Source: Bradyrhizobium sp. sBnM-33
Lineage (GTDB): Bacteria; Pseudomonadota; Alphaproteobacteria; Rhizobiales; Xanthobacteraceae
Length of the DNA: 64,000 bases
Reading direction: 5' to 3'
NCBI RefSeq assembly: GCF_032917945.1
Contig: NZ_CP136624.1
Coordinates: forward strand, 7,564,001-7,628,000
Below are positions 24,551 through 44,505 of this stretch, in pieces. The notes under the pieces are model-generated. The model ran no database searches. It worked only from the letters and a program-made list of their open reading frames with translations, and was not told the DNA's origin. A program made the position numbers and the translations under genes. Within the stretch, counting starts at the first letter, position 1. The number at the start of each line of letters is the position of its first letter.

Positions 24551-24800
24551 CGAGCGGAGGTCGGTCGACTTCATTCGATCGCTTCGACGACAAGCAGTTC
24601 CTTGCCAGCGGCGGTACGGATATGGGGCAAGGTCCCAGCACTGCTAGGACGCGCGAGAGCCGTTGCGCGCGTTCGGGGGCGAACTAAAAGCATCCGGACA
24701 TTGAAAGATTTTCCCTTCGCCCCGCTGAACCAACTACCAAGGATGGCACTCGAAGCCTATGATGCTCGCCTGCCGCTAAGGGACATTGTGGGGAACCAGG

Positions 24801-27800
24801 ATGCCCGAGAAGGTGGAACGGCCAGCGGACAACATTTCATCCAGCACCCCATCCGATCGCTATGGCGGGCTGGGTGAGCGCCGACAGGCAACTGTGCTGT
24901 TTGCAGATTTGGTAGGCTTTACTGCGTTTTCGGAGCGATCCGGCGAAGAAGCAGCCTACTCCCTGATGCAGCACATTTCAGCGCTGATGACCGATGCCAT
25001 CCATGAGGAGGGCGGCACCGTGAGGAGCTTCACGGGCGACGGTATAATGGCGCTCTTTGGAGTGCCGATTGCACTGGAAGACGCTCCGCTGAGAGCCTGC
25101 CGGGCAGCACTAGACATCCAACGGCGAATTAGCTCGGCCGCCGCCGAAATCGAGACGAAGTACGGGCTGCGGCCTTTAATGAGGATCGGCATCAACACCG
25201 GGCCAATGATCGTGGGCGAAATGCGCAGCGGCGCGAGTACCAGCGTGACCGCGATTGGGGATACCGTGAACCTCGCTTCGCGTTTGCAATCACTTGCCGA
25301 GCCAGGGAGCGTGCTACTAAGCGAGGCGACGCATCGCCTGGTGCAAGGGCTGGTGCGGTGCGGGCCCGCGGGCGAGTACGAGATTAAAGGCAAGACCGAG
25401 AGGCAAAAGGCCTTTCCCTTAGACAGGATTCGGCAACGCGCGGCACGCTTCGATGCAGCATTGAGCCGAGGGCTCACGAATTATGTCGGGCGCAGCAGTG
25501 AGCTGAAAGCCCTGAATCGAGCTCTTGAAAGAGCGACAGACGCTATGGTGGTGGTCGACGTGGTCGGGGAACCGGGTATCGGCAAGTCTAGGTTGGTCCA
25601 CGAGTTTCGAAGTCACCTGGCAGATGAACGGCTGTTCGTGCTGTCCGGAAGTTGCACGCCGGACGGCCAGCAGACGCCGTTTTTGCCATTCATTGATATT
25701 GTGCGCGGCTCGTTTCGACTCGTTGAGGAGGAAACTGAAGACGACATAACGCGAAAGCTGGAGAAGGGACTGGAAGTGCTCGGTCTTGTTAGCGAGCAGA
25801 ACCTGGCATTGCTGCTGAACCTGCTGGGACTTAAGACGAAAGAAGGAGCCTTGAAGGGATTGGATGGCGTGCTCATCGGCTTGCGTACGCGTGACCTCCT
25901 GATCCGCCTCCTCCAGGAACGCTGCCGAATTACACCTGCGGTCATGATCCTCGAGGATCTTCACTGGATCGATAGTGTCTCCGAGGAGCTGATCGCGAGA
26001 TTGGTCAATAATGAGGAGAAAATCCCGCTTCTGATTGTCTACACACGTCGTCCAGAGTACCGGCTGCCGGGGATGGAGCCGAACAGCGTCACGGAGATTC
26101 TGCTTGGGCCGCTATCGGCAGCGGATACCTCGCTTATCGTTCGAGAGCGGCTTGGGGTGGCGGACCTGCCAACCACGCTCAACCAGCTGGTGACGAACAG
26201 GGCTGAAGGGAATCCCCTGTTTGCAGAGGAGATTGCAAGCTATCTCAATGAGCACGGAATGGTGCGAGCCCGCGCCGGCGTGGTGGAGTACAATGCCGCA
26301 ACGGTCGCGGCGGCACTCCCGGGGAGCATTCAGGCCCTCCTGACCGCCCGCGTTGACGGCCTTGCACCACCGGATAGAGCGTTGCTGCAAGCAGCAGCCG
26401 TCGTGGGACGTTCATTTGCTCCCGACCTGTTGTCCGCAATAAGTGGAACAAGCCCAGATGTTGGCGCACAGCTCTTGGCGATGCAGGCGTTAGATTTGGT
26501 ATACGAGGATAAGAAATCCGGGGAGCTCGTCTTCAAGCATGCGCTGGTGCGAGATGCACTGTACGACAGCCTGTTGAGCGGGCCACGCATGGCGCTGCAT
26601 CAGAAGGTCGCGGCCGAAGTCGAGCGGCGCAGCGCCAATCGGCTTGTCGAGGTGGCAGAGACCCTCGCGTATCATTACGGATGCACAGCGTCGGCCGATA
26701 AAGCCTTTCGTTACCTCGCAATGGCAGCCAAGAAAAGCCTCGACATCTATGCCCTCGAGGAGGCCGAGCGGTATTTTCAAAGAGCCCTCCAGCTCGCGGA
26801 AGCGGACGCGGGCTGTGTATCGGACCTGGAATTTGCCGACATGCTGGTCGACTTCGCTCGGCTTCTCAATTTAGATGCGCGGGTCAAAGAGCTGACCGAC
26901 GTACTGGAGCGTCACTTGTCGCGGATTGAGGCCGCCGGTGATACCGGTTGTTTGGTTCTCGTTTTGCACCACTATTCGTGGGCCCTGTTGACCAGGGCGC
27001 AATTTCGAGCTGCGCACGAGGTCGGCCGTCGCTGTATGGAAGTGGCAGAGCGACTGAGCGACAATCGCTCAATGGCCTACGGTCAATCTGGCTTTATTCA
27101 GACCTCGAGCGTTGTGGCACCGTTGCCGCTTCAAGCCTTCGAGAAGCTGGGGCAGGAGGCATTGGAGCTTAGCGACAAGATCGATGACACTTACCTACGA
27201 GCCTGGGTGCTCTTTGTCCTGGCATGGGATTACCTCATGCGGGGCCTGACGCGCGAGGCCCGGCAATACGGCGACCGGCTCCTAACTGCCGCGCGGAATC
27301 ATGACGATCCCAGAGCTACCGCGCTGGGCCTATGGCTCCTCGGTTGGGTGGATATCGTTGACGAGCGGCATGGCCTCGCTGTGGCGCATGCCGATGAATC
27401 TATTCGCACTGCTCTGACGCCCATGGATCGAAGTATCGGGATGCAGGTCAAAGGAGTTGCCTTGGTGCTCACTGGCAAGCTTGACGAGGGATTGGCGATA
27501 CTCCGTCCGCTCCGCAATGATTTTCTTGCAAACGACTGGCGCTACAATCTCAGCGGAACAGATCTGGCTCTGAGCATGGCAACTATTTTGGCCGGGGCAT
27601 TCAGCCGAGGTGAACGGCTCTGCGAAAAATACGTCCGTGAGCAAGAGGCTGCCGGCTATCAAATGGCCGCGGACTGGGGAAGGATCAATCTGGCTGAAGT
27701 TTATTTGGAGACGCTATCGAGTGAGCAGAGGCCGCCACTCCAAATAATTCTAAGAAACGCAGTCTTTCTGCTACGTGTCAGATTTTCTGGACGGGCACGG

Positions 27801-28028
27801 ATCAAACGCCTGCTTCAGAAAGCGGGCGAGAACAATCAGTTCAGCGAGCGTGGAATATTGAAAGCGCGCGTCGAATTGGGTTTGGGGCGTTTGTACTGTC
27901 TGGAGCGACGTACAGTCCTTGCCAAAGAGCATTTGGCCCGGGCCAAACGCATAGCGGAGCAGCTATGTGCCGATGCTATGCTCGCGCGAATAAACAAGCT
28001 AGAGCAGACCGTCGCGGGAAGGAGCTGA
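24801..28028 (+). CDS. Class III cyclase / AAA ATPase / TPR regulator
   Basis: This 1075-residue protein has three parts. Residues about 20-195 form a class III nucleotide cyclase domain (RQATVLFADLVGFTAFSERS; RSFTGDGIMALFGVPIALED; GDTVNLASRLQSLAEPGSVL), with both metal-binding Asp regions visible. A STAND-type ATPase follows, with Walker A VVGEPGIGKSRLVHEF near 260 and Walker B VMILEDLHWID near 385. The remainder is helical repeats of TPR type. The ATG at 24801 is preferred to a TTG at 24786. Such proteins are cytoplasmic signalling switches making cAMP on stimulation; the signal is unknown. A paralogue is at 51510-54854. Confidence 0.9.
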   Translation: MPEKVERPADNISSSTPSDRYGGLGERRQATVLFADLVGFTAFSERSGEEAAYSLMQHISALMTDAIHEEGGTVRSFTGDGIMALFGVPIALEDAPLRACRAALDIQRRISSAAAEIETKYGLRPLMRIGINTGPMIVGEMRSGASTSVTAIGDTVNLASRLQSLAEPGSVLLSEATHRLVQGLVRCGPAGEYEIKGKTERQKAFPLDRIRQRAARFDAALSRGLTNYVGRSSELKALNRALERATDAMVVVDVVGEPGIGKSRLVHEFRSHLADERLFVLSGSCTPDGQQTPFLPFIDIVRGSFRLVEEETEDDITRKLEKGLEVLGLVSEQNLALLLNLLGLKTKEGALKGLDGVLIGLRTRDLLIRLLQERCRITPAVMILEDLHWIDSVSEELIARLVNNEEKIPLLIVYTRRPEYRLPGMEPNSVTEILLGPLSAADTSLIVRERLGVADLPTTLNQLVTNRAEGNPLFAEEIASYLNEHGMVRARAGVVEYNAATVAAALPGSIQALLTARVDGLAPPDRALLQAAAVVGRSFAPDLLSAISGTSPDVGAQLLAMQALDLVYEDKKSGELVFKHALVRDALYDSLLSGPRMALHQKVAAEVERRSANRLVEVAETLAYHYGCTASADKAFRYLAMAAKKSLDIYALEEAERYFQRALQLAEADAGCVSDLEFADMLVDFARLLNLDARVKELTDVLERHLSRIEAAGDTGCLVLVLHHYSWALLTRAQFRAAHEVGRRCMEVAERLSDNRSMAYGQSGFIQTSSVVAPLPLQAFEKLGQEALELSDKIDDTYLRAWVLFVLAWDYLMRGLTREARQYGDRLLTAARNHDDPRATALGLWLLGWVDIVDERHGLAVAHADESIRTALTPMDRSIGMQVKGVALVLTGKLDEGLAILRPLRNDFLANDWRYNLSGTDLALSMATILAGAFSRGERLCEKYVREQEAAGYQMAADWGRINLAEVYLETLSSEQRPPLQIILRNAVFLLRVRFSGRARIKRLLQKAGENNQFSERGILKARVELGLGRLYCLERRTVLAKEHLARAKRIAEQLCADAMLARINKLEQTVAGRS

Positions 28029-29500: not shown

Positions 29501-29930
29501 GCCGTCTCCTTTTTCTTGTCGTTCGCGGATTCGCGAGCTTACAGCGCACGCCGCCGCGCACCTACCTGTACACGGCAACTGCTCTCTCTGCGAGAGCGAC
29601 CGACACCCGTATGGGCGGAAGCCGCTCGCGGATTCCGGTCGCATCGCACTAGGGCAAATAGGCCGATGTCGCGAGCCATGCATGCGCTTCCCCTTACCCC
29701 TTGCGCAATGTTGATGCCGTCGAGCTAAAAGCATCTCAGGTTCCGCGTCGAAATTAGCTAATAGGTTGGCGCATGCTGGATGGGAATGCGGAGAAGCCTG
29801 CCCGGTAAGACAAGTACAGCCCCGCATCGTTCGGTTGAGTGGCGAGGTCTGCTAATGGGATGGTCCGGCCGTGCTCCGGCCCTGCCAGCACGAGAAGCTG
29901 GCAAGGGGCGCTCAAGACAAGGAGCACGCC

Positions 29931-30995
29931 ATGTCTCAGAAAATCAACGCAGCGATCGCCGTGATCGGCATCGATATTGGCAAAAACTCGCTCCACATGG
30001 TGGGTCATGATCACCGCGGTGCCATCGTGCTGCGGCAGAAGTGGTCACGCGGCCAGGTGGAAACGCGGCTCGCCAACCTGCCGCCGTGCTTGATCGGTAT
30101 GGAGGCCTGCGTAGGCGCCCATCATCTCAGCCGCAAACTCCAGATGCTTGGCCACGACGCCCGCCTGATGCCGGCGAAGTACGTGCGCCCGTATTCGAAG
30201 GGACAGAAGAATGACTTCCGAGATGCGGAAGCCATCGCCGAGGCTGTCCAACGCCCGACGATGAAGTTCGTCGCGACCAAGACCGCCGAACAGCTCGCCC
30301 TTCAGGCACTGCACCGCGTCCGCTATCGATTGGTCGGTCAGCGTACCGGCGTCATCAATCAGATCCGTGCGTTCCTGCTGGAGCGGGGCATCGCCGTGCG
30401 GCAAGGCCTGCATTCCCTGCGGTTCGAGTTGCCGGGCATCTTGGCGACACGCATCGATGTCCTCTCGCCTCGCATGTCGCTCATCATCGAGGGCCTGGTG
30501 GAAGACTGGCGCCGGCTGGATCAGCGTATCGAGAGGCTATCTAGCGAGATCGAAACACTAGCCCATCAAGATGAGGCCTGCCGGCGACTGATGACGGTGC
30601 CTGGTATTGGCCCGATCATCTCGAGCGCAATGGTGGCCGCGATCGGCGCTGGAGACGTGTTCTCGAAAGGCCGCGACTTCGGCGCCTGGCTTGGACTTGT
30701 GCCGAAGCAGACATCGACCGGCGACCGCACGATCCTCGGCAGTATATCAAGGCGCGGCAATCGCTACCTGCGCGCGCTGTTCGTGCAAGCCGCTTGGGTT
30801 GTGCTGGTCAAGATCAGGTGTTGGGAGCGCTATGGCCTCAACTCTTGGATCCGAGCCGCCAAGAAACGATTGCATCACAACGTGCTGGCGATTGCGCTCG
30901 CTAACAAACTCGCCCGAATTGCCTGGGCGGTCCTCAACAAGGGACGCGCCTTCGCGAGCGTCAAGACGGAGGAGACAGCGTCCCAACCTGCTTGA
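29931..30995 (+). CDS. IS110-family transposase
   Basis: The start at 29931 (MSQKINAAIAVIGIDIGKNS) is favoured over the frame start at 29871. The 354-residue protein has the DEDD catalytic N-terminal domain, with Asp in IGIDIGK, Glu in LIGMEACVGAHH and Asp residues in QKNDFRDAEAIAEAV. The C-terminal transposase_20 domain contains VPGIGPIISSAMVAAIGAG and a final helical region. It is uninterrupted. IS110-type elements lack classical inverted repeats, and I could not set the ends. The group uses a bridge RNA from the flanking non-coding part. Confidence 0.92.
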   Translation: MSQKINAAIAVIGIDIGKNSLHMVGHDHRGAIVLRQKWSRGQVETRLANLPPCLIGMEACVGAHHLSRKLQMLGHDARLMPAKYVRPYSKGQKNDFRDAEAIAEAVQRPTMKFVATKTAEQLALQALHRVRYRLVGQRTGVINQIRAFLLERGIAVRQGLHSLRFELPGILATRIDVLSPRMSLIIEGLVEDWRRLDQRIERLSSEIETLAHQDEACRRLMTVPGIGPIISSAMVAAIGAGDVFSKGRDFGAWLGLVPKQTSTGDRTILGSISRRGNRYLRALFVQAAWVVLVKIRCWERYGLNSWIRAAKKRLHHNVLAIALANKLARIAWAVLNKGRAFASVKTEETASQPA

Positions 30996-34356: not shown

Positions 34357-35973
34357 ATGACGATTCCCTGCCGCGTCCTAATGATCTATCCGAAGTTCGT
34401 CCCGGACTCGTTCTGGAACTATACGGAAGCTTGCGAACTGGTCGGCGCGAAGTATCCGGCGGCGCCACTCGGCCTGATCACCGTCGCTGCCATGCTGCCG
34501 AAGGATTGGGACATCCGTCTCGTCAACCGTAACACCGAGCCTTTGACGGACGCGGACCTCGACTGGGCCGATCTCGTGATGATCGGCGGCATGCTCAACC
34601 AGCAGCCTGATTTCATGTACCTGATCGATCTCGCCCACCTGCACGGCAAGCCAGTATGCGTCGGTGGACCTGACGTGTCCTCCAGCCCGCATCTTTACGC
34701 GGACGCGGACTTCCAGGTGATCGGCGAGGCCGAGCAAATCATCGAGCAATTCATCGCCGCCTGGGAAAGCGGCGAGCGCAAGGGCGTGTTCATCGCCGAG
34801 AAATTCAAGATCGACGTCACGCTAAGCCCGATGCCCCGCTACGATCTGATCGAGTTCGATCACTATCTCTTCATCGGCGTGCAATATTCGCGTGGCTGCC
34901 CGTTCACCTGCGAGTTCTGCGATATTATCGAGCTGTATGGTCGCGTGCCGCGCACCAAGACCAACGATCAGATTCTCGCCGAGCTGCAAGCACTCTACGA
35001 TCACGGTTATCGCGGGCATGTCGATTTCGTCGACGACAATTTCATCGGCAACAAGAAAAACCTTCGCACACTATTACCGCGGCTCAAAGCCTGGCTGGAA
35101 GAGCGCGACTATCCGTTCGAGTTCTCGACCGAAGCCTCGATCAATATCGCGGACGACAGCGAGCTGTTGCAGGCAATGAAGGACGCGAACTTCTTCGGGA
35201 TTTTCGTCGGCATCGAGAGCCCGGATCCAGAGACGCTCGTGCAGATGAAGAAGAAGCAGAACACCAGGCGCAACATCGCCGAGTGCATTCATAAGATCTA
35301 CGGCTACGGCATGTTCGTCACCGCGGGTTTCATCGTTGGGTTCGATAGCGAGAAAGTCTCGATGGGGCAGGCGATGATCGACTTCATCGAGGAGGCGAAC
35401 GTTCCAGTCTGCATGGTTGGACTGCTCTATGCGCTGCCTGGTACACAGCTGACGCGGCGGCTAGCCAAGGAAGGCCGCCTGCACAACGGCCATGACCTCA
35501 TGAAGGTCGAGCAGGCGGGCGACCAATGCACGCTGGGCTGCAATTTCGACACCAAGCGTCCGCTTCGTGACATCCTTGCGGATTACAAGGCCGTGCTCGG
35601 ACACGTGTTCAGCCCGACGGCATATGCAGGACGGCTGTCGCGGCTTGCCGTCATGCTCGACCGGTCCGATCGGCGCCGCGACCTGCCGGATGGCGACATG
35701 CGCAAGAGGCTTGGCGGCATCGACAGCGTGCACAAGATCATGCGTGCCCTGCCGGAGGTTTGCGAGCCGTTCTGGAAGACCTTCGTCGAGGTCGCCAAGA
35801 CCAATCCACGCGCGCTGCGCTACATTGTGATGCTGATGGCGCTGTACCTGCACCTCGGGCCGTTCTCGAAGCGCGTGATCAGTGAGATTGACCGCCGGAT
35901 TGCCGAGCTGGACGGTATGCCTCCGGTGAGGGCCACGGGGGTTAAGCAGACGCTACCGCCAGCGACGGTGTAG
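34357..35973 (+). CDS. B12-binding radical SAM protein (DUF4070, HpnP-like)
   Basis: The 538-residue product has an N-terminal cobalamin-binding-type domain (residues about 1-150, with LGLITVAAMLPKDWDIRLVN), a radical SAM domain with the cluster motif RGCPFTCEFCDI near residue 187, and a C-terminal DUF4070-type helical part. This layout is shared by HpnP, which methylates hopanoids at C-2, and by other B12 radical SAM methylases and cyclases. Hopanoids are typical of Bradyrhizobium, but no hpn genes are nearby, so the substrate is open. Its 3' end overlaps a broken lipid A acyltransferase gene on the other strand by 21 bp. Confidence 0.85.
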   Translation: MTIPCRVLMIYPKFVPDSFWNYTEACELVGAKYPAAPLGLITVAAMLPKDWDIRLVNRNTEPLTDADLDWADLVMIGGMLNQQPDFMYLIDLAHLHGKPVCVGGPDVSSSPHLYADADFQVIGEAEQIIEQFIAAWESGERKGVFIAEKFKIDVTLSPMPRYDLIEFDHYLFIGVQYSRGCPFTCEFCDIIELYGRVPRTKTNDQILAELQALYDHGYRGHVDFVDDNFIGNKKNLRTLLPRLKAWLEERDYPFEFSTEASINIADDSELLQAMKDANFFGIFVGIESPDPETLVQMKKKQNTRRNIAECIHKIYGYGMFVTAGFIVGFDSEKVSMGQAMIDFIEEANVPVCMVGLLYALPGTQLTRRLAKEGRLHNGHDLMKVEQAGDQCTLGCNFDTKRPLRDILADYKAVLGHVFSPTAYAGRLSRLAVMLDRSDRRRDLPDGDMRKRLGGIDSVHKIMRALPEVCEPFWKTFVEVAKTNPRALRYIVMLMALYLHLGPFSKRVISEIDRRIAELDGMPPVRATGVKQTLPPATV

Positions 35974-36310
35974 CCACAGCCACTGATCGGGATATTCGCG
36001 GATCCAGCCCTCGATCACCGACGTGACCGCCTGCATCGTTCCCTGAATGTCGATTTGCCCGGCGGCGTCGCGGGCCGGCTTCACTTCTTCAGACAGTTCG
36101 GCACGAAAGCGGTGTCCGGGCAGGCGGATGATGCGCACGCCATGAATCGAGCACTCGATCTGCCGCAGCAGCCGGGCCAGCATCGGATTGGCCTTGTTCT
36201 TGCGGCCAAAGAAAGTAACCTCGACACCGTTGGTCAGATACTGGCCGACCAGCAGCCCGACGTGCTGACCACTTTTCAGGGCCTCCGCAAGTTTTAGGGG
36301 TGCGTCACGA
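35953..36310 (-). pseudogene. 3' half of a lipid A acyltransferase (LpxL/HtrB type)
   Basis: The readable part runs from APLKLAEALKSGQHVGLLVG through TFFGRKNKANPMLARLLRQI to IREYPDQWLWLHRRWR, the C-terminal half of LpxL/HtrB-type late acyltransferases. The N-terminal half with the membrane segment and the H-x4-D catalytic motif is missing. Upstream of about 36310 the sequence is instead the 3' end of the endonuclease/TIR gene on the same strand. The frame stays open into that gene, but the added residues are unrelated. This marks a recombination junction at about 36305. Confidence 0.75.
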
Positions 36311-38056
36311 CCAGCTGGAATCAGCGTGCGCGAGCATGCGCCCATGCCACTGCTTGTTGCGCCAACCCTTGCAAATGCTTCGGCGCAGGCGATGAAGCTT
36401 CCTGGGATCGTCAATGCTGAGACCCACCGGCGTTTCATTATCGACCGCGAACAGGACTCTCGACTTGAGCTTCAGATGCCAGAATGGCCAGAAGTAGGGC
36501 ATCGCGGTGACGCCGAACTGCCAGACATGTCCCTTCGCGACATTGCGAAGCATTGAGGACCGCCGGTCGCCTTGCTTGCCCCACGGGATGCGTTGTCCGA
36601 GCGCTGCCTGTGCAGCCGAAGCATGGAAGCCGACAGCGCTGGAATAGTGATATTCGACAAAGCCCCGCTCCCGGCAGAATGACAGCCAGGCTTTCTTGAT
36701 CATCGCAATGACCAGATTGGACGCGACCTGGCGCTCGATCCCGATCGGAGAAAAGCCGTCGTCGACGAATTCCAGCAACGGTATCTCGTGCTTCAGCTTG
36801 AAGCGGCCAGCGAACGCGAACGCGGCGTCGACTTCAGATTGATCCGCGAAGGTAATGATCCCGGAGCCCTGCTTCGCGCAGGGATAGGGGAAATCCTCGA
36901 GCGCGCGATCGAGCAATCGGTCCTCGATCGCACCGGTGCTCTCGAAGAATCGGATGACGTCGGGCGCTTCCGCGGCACGCAACCAGTTCGCGGTCAATCG
37001 CTCGGCTTCGTCGATAAGCGGGATCGCGCCGCGCCGCCGGAAGATCTCCCAGTTCGGATCGATCACCGGTTCGCCGGCGGGACGCGGCACCTTCTGCCGC
37101 TGCAGCGCGTCAAGCAGTAAGCCGACACCTTCCCCCCAGCCGCGCACAAAATCGACGGTCACCGCATCCCCGACGCCCTTGACCTTCTTTCCCGGTTCGA
37201 GCCGCAGCGGAATGATGAACCGGGAATCGCCGAGCTCTTTGGCCATCTCTAGCGCGATGTCGAGATCATCCTGAACATGCGCGTTGGAGAGCGTGGCATC
37301 GCGGCAGATGAGCAGAACTTTCACTGCCCGGTATTGCAGCGCCTCATTGATTTGCCGGCGCCATCGGTCGCCGGGCTGAAGCGTCAGGATGTCGGCGAAC
37401 ACGCGGTACCCCTCGGCCTCAAGCTTGGGCGCGAGCCAAAGCGAAAATTCGTCGTCGATCGGCGACGCCTTGATCAGAAAGATCGTGTCTCGCATCGCTT
37501 TGTCAGCGGCTGCGGCGTCGCCCGCGACTGCCGCCGGCGGCATAAGATTGGCGAGGACGGTCGGGATCAGTCCTGGTTTCGCAAGGGCCCTCCCGACAGC
37601 TTCCGTGACAACGGTTTGCAGAACCGACGTGTTCTGCGCCCAAAGCTTTTGATGGGCTTTCTCGATCTCTGGATATTTGCGCAACAGGGCGTTGAGGTCT
37701 CCGGGTCCGAAAATGTCGCCCGGCGTTTGCAGCGATGGGCCGATGATCTCGGCCAACGCGGTCTTGTTCTTTGGCGTGAGTGGCGCGGACGTTACGAGGA
37801 TGTAGCGCGTCGGCGCCAGCCGGTCGATCGATTGCCGCTCCTTCGTCATCTTCGACTTCAAGGCCGCGAAGCCGGAGCCGCGGTAATGCTTCGCCTGCAT
37901 TACGATCGATCCGTCGGCACGCGCATGGTGTCCGTCCATCCCGTCGTCCGGGCCCTCGGGAAAGGCTTCGAATGGCAGGTCTATCTCGCGCCCGACGAGG
38001 TCGCGGGCCAGATCCTCAAACTCGCTGTGGGACAGACTTGAAAAGTCATAATTCAT
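36305..38056 (-). CDS. Restriction endonuclease-like / TIR fusion protein
   Basis: The 583-residue product (ATG 38056; a TTG at 38092 is possible) begins with an Mrr-like PD-(D/E)xK nuclease: LSHSEFEDLARDLVGREIDL, PDDGMDGHHARADG and IVMQAKHYRGSGF, with Asp and the Q-x-K element. Residues about 190-310 form a TIR domain: DTIFLIKASPIDDEFSLWLA, EGYRVFADILTLQPGDRWRR, INEALQYRAVKVLLICRDA. A long C-terminal region (about 270 residues) is unrecognised. TIR domains in bacterial defence cleave NAD or make signal nucleotides, so an antiphage role is likely. It is transcribed divergently from the HEPN/Toprim gene, and its stop lies at the junction with the lpxL fragment. Confidence 0.8.
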   Translation of the reverse strand: MNYDFSSLSHSEFEDLARDLVGREIDLPFEAFPEGPDDGMDGHHARADGSIVMQAKHYRGSGFAALKSKMTKERQSIDRLAPTRYILVTSAPLTPKNKTALAEIIGPSLQTPGDIFGPGDLNALLRKYPEIEKAHQKLWAQNTSVLQTVVTEAVGRALAKPGLIPTVLANLMPPAAVAGDAAAADKAMRDTIFLIKASPIDDEFSLWLAPKLEAEGYRVFADILTLQPGDRWRRQINEALQYRAVKVLLICRDATLSNAHVQDDLDIALEMAKELGDSRFIIPLRLEPGKKVKGVGDAVTVDFVRGWGEGVGLLLDALQRQKVPRPAGEPVIDPNWEIFRRRGAIPLIDEAERLTANWLRAAEAPDVIRFFESTGAIEDRLLDRALEDFPYPCAKQGSGIITFADQSEVDAAFAFAGRFKLKHEIPLLEFVDDGFSPIGIERQVASNLVIAMIKKAWLSFCRERGFVEYHYSSAVGFHASAAQAALGQRIPWGKQGDRRSSMLRNVAKGHVWQFGVTAMPYFWPFWHLKLKSRVLFAVDNETPVGLSIDDPRKLHRLRRSICKGWRNKQWHGRMLAHADSSWS

Positions 38057-38330
38057 GCGTCCAGAATGAGTGCTCGTTTCCTGGGCAGTCAAGCAAGGGA
38101 TTGCGATATTGCTTCGTCCCCAAGTCTTACTAACAACAAGATAAACCGGCTTTTACTGACGTACTCTGGGCGGGGTAGAGCTTACTTCGCGGAAGCCGGG
38201 ATCGGCCGCAATACGCTTCCGTTCAATTGTCCACAAAGTTGCCGCTGGGATCATCACGAGGTGAGCGAAGTTGACGACTGCCTTGGCCGCGCCGGTGCGC
38301 GCTTATCAAGTTCTCGCAACAGGAGATCGC

Positions 38331-39669
38331 GTGGGTACTGAAATCCATCTCGAATTTGGCGGGCTGTCCCTGGACTGGGCCAAGAACCACCGAGGCGTGG
38401 ACCACGGGTCACTTTTCCAGGAACGGGATCGGCGCGCGGTTCATAGCGACCAGATCAACTATGATCATTTCAGCGAAACGGGCGACGACCCCACGCCGAT
38501 GGAGATGGCCTTCGTACGCGAACTCAAGGACGTCCTGCCAAGGCTCGCGTTGCTCGGCTATACGATGGAACAAGCGCGGGTAGCCTACGACGATCTGGCC
38601 ACCCAATACGTGGACACTCGCGAAGCAATAACCGAGCTGGATGAGCCACCCGGCGTAGAACCGCTCTCGTTCGATGAGTTCTGCGCCTTCGCCAATCGGT
38701 ATCCTATCTCCGCGCTGAACGATACCGTTCGTCATCTCGACGAATGGGAGAGTCGTTCGAGACCGCAAGGACGCTTCGTCGACGACGAAACAACAATAAG
38801 CCGTATCCCCAGCGTGGACCATGACCCTGCGACCTGGTCCGAACGCGCCTATTTCGGCAGCTGCATCACCATTCTTCATCCTTACCTGATGTTGCAAGTT
38901 CTCGCCGGTAATTCTGCCAACCTCGAGGCCGATGTCGTTTGGCAGTATGGTCCGCTTCTCGAAGCGGGGGTGGGCTGGCCCAGATGAATTCACGCCTCTC
39001 GCGCGCCGCACTGAAACCTTCCTCATCGCCACCGAAGGCAGTTCCGATGCGCACATCCTGCAGCACGCGTTTACCCTCCTGCGCCCCGAAATCACGGACT
39101 TTTTCCGATTTATCGATGTCAGCGAGCGCCATCCATTCCCGGGCACAGGCAACCTCCTCAAGTTTGCTGAAGGCCTCGCGAAGATCGACGTGCAAAATCA
39201 GATTGTTTTCGCGTTTGACAATGACGCTGAAGGGACCGAAGCGTTCAACAAGCAAGGTGCACTGGCGCTTCCCTCCAACATGCGGGCGATGGTTCTCACG
39301 TCGCTCGAGGCGTTCCGATCGTTTCCGGCCAAGGGGCCCGAAGGCGATCACGTTGCGGATATCAACGGGCGCGCCGCGGCGATCGAATGCTATCTCGACC
39401 ATCGCGTGGGCAACTTTCCCCCGCCACGGGTGGTTTGGAGCAATTACAAGAGGGAGACCGACAGCTACCAGGGCGCGCTTGACCATAAGGAAAGCTATGT
39501 CAAAGCCTTCTTGAAACTGACCGTCGAGAACTTGCCGACGAGTGGATACGACACCAGTAGAATCGACAGGGTGCTCGATGCTGTGGTTGAGCAGTGCCGT
39601 CTGATGGCTATAGGCGAGCTCGCAGCGCGGCTAGCTGGGCAAGACGGCCAACTCACAGCCCCGATGTAA
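38331..39669 (+). CDS. HEPN/Toprim-associated protein, split by one-base frameshift
   Basis: The GTG at 38331 follows aggag. The first frame (to 38987) gives VGTEIHLEFGGLSLDWAKNH and EMAFVRELKDVLPRLALLGY, matching the HEPN/Toprim-associated N-terminal family. The second frame continues GPDEFTPLARRTETFLIATE, then GSSDAHILQHAF, and FAFDNDAEG, showing the Glu and D-x-D elements of a Toprim domain. Removing one G from the G5 run at 38966-38970 joins both into about 445 residues (GPLLEAGWAGPDEF). The break may be decay, phase variation or a sequence error. The context with TIR genes suggests defence. Confidence 0.72.
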
Positions 39670-39829
39670 GGGCGAGCTGCCGTCCGATGGCTCTACTCGC
39701 TGCGCTCACCGAACCCACGCGAGATGGTTTCGGCCCATCCGAGTGACGATCCTCTGACGGACGGGCTAGGACGCAGCGCCGTCCCTAGCGTCCGTGCTGC
39801 CGGTGTGGTTTACGAAAACCGAACCGAAG

Positions 39830-40869
39830 TCACTCATCCGCCAATAGCTTCTTGACCCCCTCCTGGGATTTTCGCCACTCTTCGAACGCCTCCTTATCGT
39901 CTCGTGAAGATCGATCTCGACGTAGTTCGTGCGAATGATCGCCAGCAAGGCTTCCAACCGCCGATGCATCTCGGCGCGCGCGACAAGAATCGCCTCCCAA
40001 TCGGCCTCTTGCTCCTCGGTCACCAGCACATCGCCAGGACTTGAGAAGACGTTCATCCCAGTGCGGGTGTCAGTGTAGTTCCGTCCGTAGGACGTCGCTT
40101 CGTTCCACGCGGCGTCGAGCCCACGAACGGCGGCGTCGAGCGCAGGATCATTGATGTGAAATAGCGAGTTGCTGACTACGCCGTGAAAGCTCTCATAGTA
40201 AAACAGGTCGCGGTTGAGGATGGAGTGGGGCAGCCGTTCGATGTGGCCTTGCAACGCCGGAATGGCAAACTGCGAGAGGGCCCACCGTGCAGCGCGCAGG
40301 TCACGCTCGCGGCGAACCTGAGCCGGGTCCATCATCCTGAGTTCAGCGGGGCGGGCCGGATTGCCGTCCAGTATTGCCTTGAGCGCCATGACGAGCAGAT
40401 CGGTCAGTCGCTCGATGCCCTTCTTGTCGTTCGCCTCCTTGACCCGGTATTGCGAGATCCGCTGGCGATCGAAATCGAACGGTAGGTCCTCGTATTTGGC
40501 AATCGACAGGTTCGTCAGCAGGATCATTCGCTTCCAGCCGAGATGCGCTGCGGCATAGCCGACCTCGAACGTCACGTTGGGGTTGGGACAGGGCCGCGCC
40601 TTGATCTCGTCCGGTGCCAGCGGTGTGACGGTCGTCACGTCACCAACAAAGATGTCCGCGGCCTCGATTTTCTCCAGTATCGAACGCGGCACATTGTCCG
40701 CGCCCATCATGTCGCGGGTCGCCTCGTCGAGTTTCAGCGTGAGCTCCGGCTGTTCGCGCTCAATCCGGGCGGCGGCTGCAACTAATGCCTGACGGATAGC
40801 ATTTCGATTGGTGCTGGCAGGAGAATCACTTTGCCATGCATAGAAGACGGCGTGCTCAGTCTTGCTCAA
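39830..40869 (-). CDS. TIR-like domain protein, frameshift near the C-terminus
   Basis: The product starts at a TTG (40869) and shows the TIR-like pattern of CAP12/Pycsar-type effectors: HAVFYAWQSDSPASTNRNAI, ILEKIEAADIFVGDVTTV, and PNPNVTFEVGYAAAHLGWKR then MILLTN. The middle and end are helical. The annotated frame runs to 39766 with an Arg-rich tail, but another frame gives DDKEAFEEWRKSQEGVKKLL and ADE then stop at 39830, clearly the natural end. One missing G near 39900 explains the shift. About 346 residues if repaired. It converges on the HEPN/Toprim gene. An NAD-cleaving defence role is inference. Confidence 0.72.
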
Positions 40870-41261
40870 ATGCCTGCTCTTTGTCGGGCGTGTCTGCTGG
40901 AAATGTCTGCATCTGAGCGGAAGTCGAGGTTCCTAGCAACATAGCGTTCAACTACGTGGACCGACGTTCGCGCTAAAATCGGCCAGCAAGGCTTGTGCCC
41001 AATGTCAAGAATTCAAGAGAACCAGTAGCGCTTGCTCGGGGCTACATCGCGACGATCGAGGCGGTCTGATCGCGCGAAAAGGTCTTACGCCGCGGGCGGT
41101 CAATTGTATGGGTTGGCGAGCGATTCGGTTGGCCCCTTTCGTTCAGGGAAGGTCCTGGGGAGCACCAATGTTGGTAGCCGTGTTGGTTTCTATATTCCAT
41201 ATCTTTGAAATATCAATTGCTTAATCGCAAAGTTCGGTGCCGGCCAGGACGCTGACGAGGG
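40870..41261. other. Gap between defence cluster and integrase remnant
   Basis: No gene is supported. At 41156-41167 the sequence tggggagcacca followed by atgttggtagccgtgttggt resembles the tRNA-end-plus-island junction seen next to P4-type integrases, and is near the reverse of the tRNA fragment at 42401. This is weak. Confidence 0.3.
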
Positions 41262-41783
41262 TATGCGCTGAAGCTGGCTCCGCTGGTCATTGTGCGACCT
41301 GTCGAGTTGCGACAGGCGGAATGGACCAAGTTCGGCCTGGCTGACGGGGAATGGCGCATACCGGCCAAAACGATGAAGATGAGACGGCCACACCGGCGCC
41401 GCTGGCGTCTCAAGCTCTCGCCATTCTTCGCGAGCTCCAGAAAATCACTGGCGGATCAAGATATCTCTTCCCGTCGGTGAGATCCTGGCATCGCCCAATC
41501 AGTCACAGCACCCCTAACGCAGCGCTGCGCGTCTCGGATACGACCAGATCGAATTGACCATTCTGGCGTGCGATCCACCGCGTCAACCTCCCGAACGAAA
41601 GCGGCAAGTGACAAGCGGATGCGATCGAACGTCGACTTGCGCATCAGGAGGCGAATGAGATCCGTGGCGCCTAGACCCATGCCGCCGAATTCTGGCAGGA
41701 GCGCCGTGCGGATGATGCGGTGGTGGGCGGACGAGTTCGACCGGCTAAGGAAGCACGGTCGTGTCATCAAAATGAGTGCCTGA
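41262..41783 (+). pseudogene. P4-type tyrosine integrase, degenerate C-terminal part
   Basis: Pieces in several frames follow the order of P4-like integrases: RPVELRQAEWTKFGLADGEW, RIPAKTMKM, SQALAILRELQKITGGSRYL then FPSVRS, STPNAALR, ADAIERRLAHQEANEIRGA and HAAEFWQERR. The catalytic Arg (RPVELR) survives, but the HxLR segment and the Tyr region are not intact. Multiple indels make it non-functional. The N-terminal half is absent. Confidence 0.7.
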
Positions 41784-43204: not shown

Positions 43205-44193
43205 CGGAACGTCGAAAACCTATTGGTACGCTTGGAAGGGCGGCCCACGCATCGACGCGGAGCCCGGCACGCCCGAGTTCATGCGCCTCTACAATGAAGC
43301 TGTTGCATCCTACAAGAAGAAGAGCGCCGAGACGTTCCGCTCGCTCATCGACTAAGGACTGCAGCGAGTACAAGGACCTCGGTGAGAAGAGTAAGCGCGC
43401 CTATGATGGCTACCTCAAACTCATCGAGGCCAAGTTCGGTTCGTTGCCAATCGGGGCTCTCGAAGACAAGCGTGTGCGGGGTGACTTCAAAGAGTTTCGT
43501 GATTCATTTTCCGACACGCCGCGCAAGGCGGACTACATCTGGACCACAATTGCGCGCGTGCTGTCGGTTGCGAAGGACCGTGGCAAGATCGCGGTGAACG
43601 TCTGCGAGCGCGGTGGCCGGCTTTATGAATCCGATCGCTCGGAGATAGTGTGGACTGCAGACGACATCCGCGCCTTCTGCGGTATCGCGTCCGTCGAGCT
43701 GCAGGCCGCTCTCCTGCTCGCGGTATGGACAGGCCAGCGCCAGGGAGACCTGCTGCGGCTGACCTGGAAGGACTACGATGGTACATACATCCGGATGCGT
43801 CAGTCGAAGGGGCGCGGCCGTAAGGCCCGGCGCCGTGTAACCATCCCGGTGGGACCGCCGCTGAAGGCGGCGCTTGATGCTGCGATGAAGGAGAAGCGCT
43901 CGGCCGTGACCATTTTGGTCAACTCGTTCGGCCGGCCATGGACGGAGGATGGTTTCAGGACAAGCTGGGATAAGGCGTTCAGGAAAACCTCGCTGAAGGA
44001 CCTGCACTTCCACGATCTGCGCGGCACTGCTGTTACGCGCCTCGCCCTGTCGAACTGCTCCGTGCCGGAGATCGCCTCTATCACCGGCCATTCGATGAAA
44101 ACGGTACAGGAGATTCTGGACGCGCACTACCTGGGTGGCCGCCTCGAGCTCGCGGAGTCAGCGATCAAGAAGCTGAGCGAAGTTTACGGGTAG
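43155..44193 (+). CDS. Tyrosine integrase split by a frameshift
   Basis: The first frame (ATG 43155 to stop 43355) gives the arm-binding part: MRVRLKGINWSIKKLADGTS then YWYAWKGGPRIDAEPGTPEF. The second frame resumes at about 43355 with CSEYKDLGEKSKRAYDGYLK and holds the whole catalytic domain: TGQRQGDLLRLTWKDY (Arg), HDLRGTAVTRLA (His, Arg), TGHSMKTVQEILDAHYLGG (His, Tyr). With the shift repaired the protein has about 345 residues, normal for the family. The gene points at tRNA-Lys 240 bp away. Whether the break is real needs resequencing. Confidence 0.75.

Positions 44194-44429: not shown

Positions 44430-44505
<76 letters not shown>

What the first reader, a model, noticed from the sequence alone, without database searches (positions are those of the whole stretch)
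36305..40869. Defence-like cluster: endonuclease-TIR fusion, HEPN/Toprim protein, TIR-like protein
Seen: three adjacent genes whose domains (Mrr-like nuclease plus TIR; HEPN/Toprim-associated; CAP12/Pycsar-like TIR) are all known from antiphage or toxin-like systems. The first two are divergent from a 270 bp spacer and the third converges on the second. Known: TIR domains deplete NAD or make nucleotide signals, and HEPN domains are often RNases. Inference: this is a compact system or several neighbouring systems; the exact combination is not one I recognise.
Basis: partly seen in the sequence, partly recalled or inferred. Interest (0 to 1): 0.75.

Follow-up and report, generated by a model that had tools for sequence, protein, structure and literature searches.

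The report
Broken Argonaute-partner remnant beside unrelated genes
The three neighbouring "defence" genes are not one system but three unrelated, damaged defence genes side by side; the first is the orphaned partner of a lost bacterial Argonaute, and its intact relatives suggest that a nuclease took over from a NAD-cutting domain that lost its key residue.

Summary
The three genes are real but are not one system.

(A) 36305-38092(-) is a REase-TIR-APAZ protein, the partner of class I short Argonautes. It is cut at 36329|36330, lacks its last ~65 residues and has no Argonaute gene. A short Argonaute adjoins its homologues in 34 of 34 places tested; none was found in this genome.

(B) 38271-39669(+), split over two frames, is a HEPN/Toprim-NTD1 domain plus a retron-Eco2-like Toprim; no HEPN domain.

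(C) 39766-40869(-) belongs to a ~345-aa TIR/nucleoside-N-glycosidase-like family; its end runs off frame.

Among 126 genus genomes the three families share only this one. 0 of 15 B loci carry A or C.

New point, in A's family: every copy with the nuclease motif has lost the TIR catalytic Glu (114 of 114 listed proteins have Asp; ten others have Asp or Leu), whereas 22 of 22 nuclease-less TIR-APAZ keep it. The nuclease copies form one clade. This suggests one effector swap: the TIR became a scaffold and an Mrr-type nuclease the effector. Inferred, not tested biochemically.

The parts
36330..38092 (-). Gene A: truncated REase-TIR-APAZ (Mrr-type nuclease residues 13-166, TIR about 200-335, APAZ to 588; last ~65 residues missing)
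   Evidence: PADLOC PDLC02400 1026 bits, PDLC02416 836 bits; SPARTA TIR-APAZ chains; 89% to the intact G110 copy over 588 residues
36305..36329 (-). Run-on of frame A into foreign sequence, to its stop
   Evidence: Homology to A ends at 36330 in three other genomes
35954..36329 (-). lpxL remnant (C-terminal half of a lipid A acyltransferase) joined to gene A
   Evidence: 93% to the whole lpxL of G015; that gene is 311 aa and convergent with the same radical-SAM gene; PF03279 positions 183-294 of 295
38057..38330 (.). A/B spacer; homology to other A loci ends inside it at 38162-38194, so it is a mosaic boundary
38331..38984 (+). Gene B, first frame: HEPN/Toprim-NTD1 domain (not a HEPN); ORF opens at 38271
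   Evidence: PF18871 188 bits; relatives 36-47% identical
38977..39669 (+). Gene B, second frame: Toprim domain with EGSSD and DND; the frame changes at about 38970-38985
   Evidence: 50% to the Toprim half of an intact relative; 11 of 15 relatives are single frames; fold match to retron Eco2 Toprim
39766..40869 (-). Gene C: TIR/nucleoside-N-glycosidase-like protein; residues 1-326 follow the family, the rest is off frame
43294..44193 (+). Tyrosine recombinase next to tRNA-Lys (44430-44505); neighbour, link to the three genes not shown
   Evidence: PF00589 61.9 bits; tRNA

Best explanation
The stretch holds three unrelated defence genes brought together by insertion and deletion, all damaged; it is not a working system. 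A is the orphaned remnant of a two-gene short-Argonaute operon (REase-TIR-APAZ plus pAgo_I); its Argonaute and its own C-terminus were lost at a breakpoint inside lpxL. In intact relatives the pair most likely works thus: the pAgo/APAZ heterodimer uses a guide RNA to find invader DNA (inferred from SPARTA and SPARDA); target binding makes the TIR domains assemble (inferred); assembly activates the Mrr-type nuclease, which cuts nucleic acid and stops the cell (inferred); the TIR itself has lost its catalytic Glu (shown in sequence). B, when intact, is a one-gene abortive-infection-like protein: NTD1 as regulator or sensor (inferred) and a Toprim nuclease, perhaps an RNase as in retron Eco2 (inferred from fold). 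C, when intact, is a TIR/nucleoside-N-glycosidase-like enzyme with a helical C-terminal part; substrate unknown.
For: A: PADLOC, SPARTA structures, intact copy with an overlapping pAgo_I gene; pAgo beside 34 of 34 homologous genes tested (15, 19 more), none in the window and none found in the own genome. Breakpoint 36329|36330 from three A homologues and one lpxL homologue. B. C. No co-occurrence: own genome only, in 126 genus genomes and in 297 order genomes; 0 of 15 B loci with A or C; 0 of the 34 A-type places with B or C in the flanks held.
Against: The frame changes in B and C rest on one assembly and could be sequencing errors. Family counts per survey are small (13, 7 and 12 of 126), so a rare association is not excluded; most flanks are about 1.5 kb and those vary. 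One search had no positive control. C's TIR-like domain is whole and could still act. That the three genes arrived separately is inferred; no att repeat of tRNA-Lys was found in the window.
Confidence: 0.85

Rival explanations
1. A new three-gene system: A, B and C act together.
For: Adjacency in the window and compact spacing; all three families are defence-linked.
Against: The lists of genomes with A, B and C overlap only in the own genome; no neighbouring A, B or C in 15 B loci or 34 A-type places; A has its own partner (pAgo) everywhere else tested.
Confidence: 0.03
2. The frame changes in B and C are sequencing errors, so the window holds a broken A beside two whole single-gene defences.
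For: Each is a single change of frame in otherwise conserved reading; P0001, 93% identical to C, is whole.
Against: A's loss is a true join of two unrelated sequences, so decay is under way at this site; other Bradyrhizobium copies of A (G038, G033) and of B (L076, L079) are also in pieces.
Confidence: 0.2
3. In the REase-TIR-APAZ family the TIR is still an NADase with Asp in place of Glu, so both effectors work.
For: Glu to Asp is conservative and near-uniform in the family; the rest of the TIR core is conserved.
Against: Two members have Leu there (L087, L088) and the Ser8 and Gly73 columns are changed too, while 22 of 22 nuclease-less relatives keep Glu. In SPARTA E77A was used as the catalytic mutant control (PMC10474274, passages).
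Confidence: 0.25

Closest known systems
PADLOC 'Aga_REase-TIR-PNTD1-PNTD2' / 'Aga_TIR-PNTD1-PNTD2', class I Argonaute accessory
   Same: Gene A matches over residues 13-589 with 836-1026 bits; intact copies match to the end
   Different: The window's copy lacks the last ~65 residues and the pAgo gene. PADLOC's name records the domains, not that the TIR pocket is altered
SPARTA (short pAgo plus TIR-APAZ), e.g. CrtSPARTA, PDB 8fex
   Same: TIR-APAZ homology along the whole TIR-APAZ chain, short pAgo next door in relatives
   Different: Extra Mrr-type nuclease in front; Asp or Leu instead of Glu77; Ser8 and Gly73 changed
SPARDA (short pAgo plus DREN nuclease-APAZ)
   Same: Nuclease joined to APAZ beside a short pAgo; likely analogous killing (PMC12205087, passages)
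   Different: SPARDA's nuclease is a DREN/DUF4365 domain without a TIR; here a TIR lies between nuclease and APAZ. Not compared by sequence here
HEPN/Toprim-NTD1 plus TOPRIM proteins (PMC3710099)
   Same: PF18871 N-domain (188 bits) followed by Toprim
   Different: The window's copy is split over two frames
Retron Eco2 (Ec67) Toprim effector
   Different: NTD1 instead of reverse transcriptase and msDNA; 16-17% identity
TIR-STING / CAP12-Pycsar TIR, and DNPH1/NDT nucleoside N-glycosidases
   Different: PF10137 below cut-off; own helical C-terminal part

Membership tests
SPARTA | TIR-APAZ protein | tested here: met
   E 8.7e-29 to TIR-APAZ chains of known structure
SPARTA | Adjacent short pAgo gene | tested here: not met
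   None in the window, none found in the genome; present in 34 of 34 related places tested
SPARTA | Catalytic Glu in the TIR (Crt Glu77) | tested here: not met
   Asp in the window and in the whole listed REase+ family, Leu in two
SPARTA | NAD(P) hydrolysis on guide/target binding | not testable with these tools
   Needs biochemistry
REase-TIR-APAZ / pAgo_I (PADLOC class I accessory) | Profile match over the full length with nuclease motif | tested here: met
   836-1026 bits, D and QxK present; C-terminal ~65 positions missing, so a broken member
   No HEPN family among Pfam hits at E <= 1; PF18871 is a non-HEPN N-terminal domain
HEPN/Toprim-NTD1 plus Toprim | PF18871 domain followed by Toprim with E and DxD | tested here: met
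   Toprim Pfam hits themselves are weak (14.1 bits, below cut-off), support is by alignment and fold
HEPN/Toprim-NTD1 plus Toprim | One open frame | tested here: not met
   Two frames in the window; 11 of 15 relatives single-framed
CAP12/Pycsar TIR effectors | PF10137 above cut-off | tested here: not met
   19.3 against 24.7 bits; 18.9 for P0001; several distant relatives carry PF10137
CAP12/Pycsar TIR effectors | TIR fold | tested here: inconclusive
CAP12/Pycsar TIR effectors | Partner cyclase gene next door | not tested
   No dedicated cyclase search was made around the gene
Three-gene A+B+C system | Repeated co-occurrence | tested here: not met
   Own genome only; no neighbouring A, B or C

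The most novel reading that the evidence does not exclude
REase-TIR-APAZ/short-pAgo systems are a SPARTA branch that swapped effectors once: an Mrr-type nuclease was added in front of the TIR, and the TIR's NADase pocket was lost (Glu77 to Asp or Leu, Ser8 to Ile/Leu/Val, Gly73 variable), leaving the TIR as the assembly platform that turns target recognition into nuclease activation. The window holds a decayed member.
Probability: 0.6. Interest if true: 0.68.

Novelty: new variant of a known kind. Interest (0 to 1): 0.5.

Why it matters
The window's cluster is a damaged patchwork and should not be pursued as a system. Its first gene, however, points to what looks like a natural case of an immune enzyme domain turning into a scaffold: TIR core positions kept, pocket positions changed, a nuclease motif unchanged beside it. 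If confirmed, TIR assembly can drive an unrelated effector, which would help explain how short-Argonaute systems exchange killing activities, and annotation that takes every TIR-APAZ for an NADase system would be wrong for this branch.

Tried and rejected
One three-gene system: rejected on co-occurrence. HEPN RNase reading of B: rejected. Programmed frameshift in B: not favoured, because 11 of 15 relatives are single frames, and the broken ones differ: the window changes frame after about residue 213, L076 after about 192, L079 after about 41. A fixed partner for C: an HNH gene is annotated just upstream in 2 of 6 annotated plasmid loci (L089, L091); the unannotated loci were only looked at by eye; no partner is claimed. 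An att repeat of tRNA-Lys within the window: none found. C in phages: no match in 50,697 records. Foldseek for the B model: no match at E <= 0.001; residues 1-223 (NTD1) are barely tested by the VIA list, so nothing is said about the novelty of that fold. PDB sequence searches with a B relative and with the C profile: nothing significant. The C order survey scored at most 6 candidates per genome at E 1e-20 and is a weak negative.

Rows dropped. One search used the 120 listed of 836 hits; P0222 among them is the window's own protein. Five of the 120 lack all three nuclease columns and one lacks one of them; all six also have Asp. The script labelled L008 REase+ from chance letters; I count it as nuclease-less because it lacks the motif. 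In 3 of 22 nuclease-less proteins (L128-L130) the Ser8 column is G, C or T, so only the Glu is kept by all 22. Left out: L083 (broken frame), L117, L124-L126, L131, L132 (nuclease-only matches), and the pieces of broken copies in G033 and G038. One search compared 14 nuclease-less with 128 nuclease-type rows. The tree (quick method, long-branch warnings) used 24 of the 120 proteins and left out L108 and L128. Rows may include near-copies, and the REase+ rows are one clade, so this is one event, not many.

Literature. For the fused architecture and a degenerate TIR I searched the held open library; one search found 0 papers for six fused-name spellings. Subscription papers were not seen. Papers were seen as search listings or passages only. 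The meaning of PADLOC's 'PNTD' comes from no call; I take it to be APAZ from the SPARTA matches.

Full report
WHAT IS THERE. The window lies at 7564001-7628000 of a single-contig 9,184,954-base genome. Gene A reads 36305-38092(-), B lies in two frames 38271-38987(+) and 38932-39669(+), and C reads 39766-40869(-). To the right are a tyrosine recombinase (43294-44193) and tRNA-Lys (44430-44505); to the left a radical-SAM gene (34357-35973) and the end of an lpxL gene.

GENE A. Pfam sees TIR_2 (60.3 bits) and a sub-threshold Mrr_cat (17.7 against 21). PADLOC identifies the whole protein as a class I Argonaute accessory: PDLC02400 1026 bits, PDLC02416 'Aga_REase-TIR-PNTD1-PNTD2' 836 bits; in the former, residues 13-589 match positions 1-574 of 639. 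Residues 200-589 match eight distinct PDB sequences named TIR-APAZ or TIR domain-containing protein, best E 8.7e-29. An intact 654-aa copy (G110, 89% identical) is followed, with a 4-base overlap, by a 518-aa gene that PADLOC calls pAgo_I (719 bits) and that matches short Argonautes of known structure (E 3.4e-105). A tblastn with that pAgo finds it beside the TIR-APAZ gene in 15 of 15 places (G110, G104, G038, G033, eight plasmids L081-L088 and three plasmids L106-L108) and in 19 of 19 further places (G062, G039, G011 and the loci L110-L116, L119-L123, L127-L130): 34 of 34. The window has none, and a search of the own genome found none (no positive control).

HOW A WAS BROKEN. DNA homology to A in three other genomes begins at exactly 36330, while homology to the lpxL gene of G015 ends at exactly 36329. 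In G015 the lpxL gene is whole (311 aa) and convergent with the same radical-SAM gene. So A's last part, the pAgo and the first part of lpxL are missing here. On the other side, homology to A ends at 38162-38194, inside the spacer before B, so that spacer is a mosaic boundary rather than a conserved divergent promoter. Close copies in G038 and G033 carry stops as well, though a pAgo still lies beside them.

ARE THEY A SYSTEM? In 126 genus genomes (same handles in the three searches) A was found in 13 (5 of these match only its nuclease part), PF18871 in 7 and C in 12, and the only genome on any two lists is the window's own. In 297 order genomes PF18871 was found in 5, A's family in 16 and C in 1 at a strict limit, again sharing only the own genome. 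None of the 34 A-type places holds B or C in the flanks held (most flanks are about 1.5 kb).

EFFECTOR SWAP IN A'S FAMILY. In the alignment with CrtSPARTA the catalytic Glu77 (PMC11156904 and PMC10474274, passages) falls on an Asp. I scored that column in the 120 listed of 836 relatives, in ten further nuclease-bearing sequences (the window, G110, L081, L082, L084-L088, L119) and in 22 nuclease-less TIR-APAZ proteins (recounted). All 114 listed proteins with the nuclease columns complete carry D-QxK and Asp; the other 6 are N-terminally short and also have Asp. Of the ten further ones eight have Asp and two (L087, L088) Leu. All 22 nuclease-less proteins have Glu, including the closest (L120, 58% identical). 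The Ser8 column is Ile, Leu or Val in every nuclease-type row and Ser in 19 of 22 nuclease-less rows. Among TIR columns conserved in at least 85% of 14 nuclease-less proteins, only those of Crt Ser8, Gly73 and Glu77, plus one Ala/Gly column, are lost in the nuclease-type set; the other core positions stay. On a tree with these three columns masked the 34 nuclease-type rows are one clade (SH-aLRT 96), inside a starred group with six nuclease-less rows; it is a quick tree with long-branch warnings. This is one evolutionary event, so it is not a repeated correlation; its force lies in the nuclease motif kept throughout the sampled family beside a pocket changed throughout. I found no paper with such a fused name in the held library. 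PADLOC already lists the architecture, so what is new is the reading, not the domain order.

MECHANISM. Shown: architecture, operon with short pAgo, nuclease motif kept, TIR pocket changed. Inferred: guide-RNA-directed detection of invader DNA and oligomerisation as in SPARTA; nuclease activation by assembly as in SPARDA (PMC12205087, passages); abortive outcome. In the window none of this can run as described, since the pAgo and the end of APAZ are gone.

VERDICT. The cluster as proposed is not a system but a damaged patchwork. The lead worth keeping is the likely effector swap in the REase-TIR-APAZ branch.

Noticed in passing
L071 8149-15953; L078 8203-16007; L074 8212-11116; L094 6212-9296; L106 1501-5938: An AbiEi-AbiEii toxin-antitoxin pair directly precedes (gap of 3 bases or small overlap) two unrelated defence genes: NTD1-Toprim in L071, L074, L078, L094 and a TIR-APAZ/pAgo operon in L106; it may be a portable head for defence operons. 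Pfam-checked in L071 only; annotated in L094 and L106; by eye in L074, L078.
   Followed up: partly
L089 7210-9119; L091 6702-9020: An HNH endonuclease gene is annotated just upstream of the C-family gene in these two plasmids, not in the other four annotated ones.
   Followed up: partly
L008 and L114, N-terminal parts before the TIR: Two nuclease-less TIR-APAZ proteins carry an extra N-terminal stretch of about 190-245 residues, similar to each other by eye; no family scan was made.
   Followed up: no
window 41260-41480: Integrase-like remnant with stops (by eye), a second trace of mobile DNA beside gene C.
   Followed up: no
L053 3117-4848 (G002): In G002 homology over the radical-SAM gene and lpxL end stops at window 36203 and an integrase-like ORF resembling the one beside the G110 Argonaute operon follows (by eye): lpxL may be a repeated insertion site.
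   Followed up: no
G000:C1:6313884-6314222: A second lpxL-like stretch, 82% identical to the remnant, so loss of this copy may be tolerated.
   Followed up: no
window 24786-28025 and 29871-30992: A guanylate cyclase-AAA-TPR protein and an IS110-type transposase.
   Followed up: no
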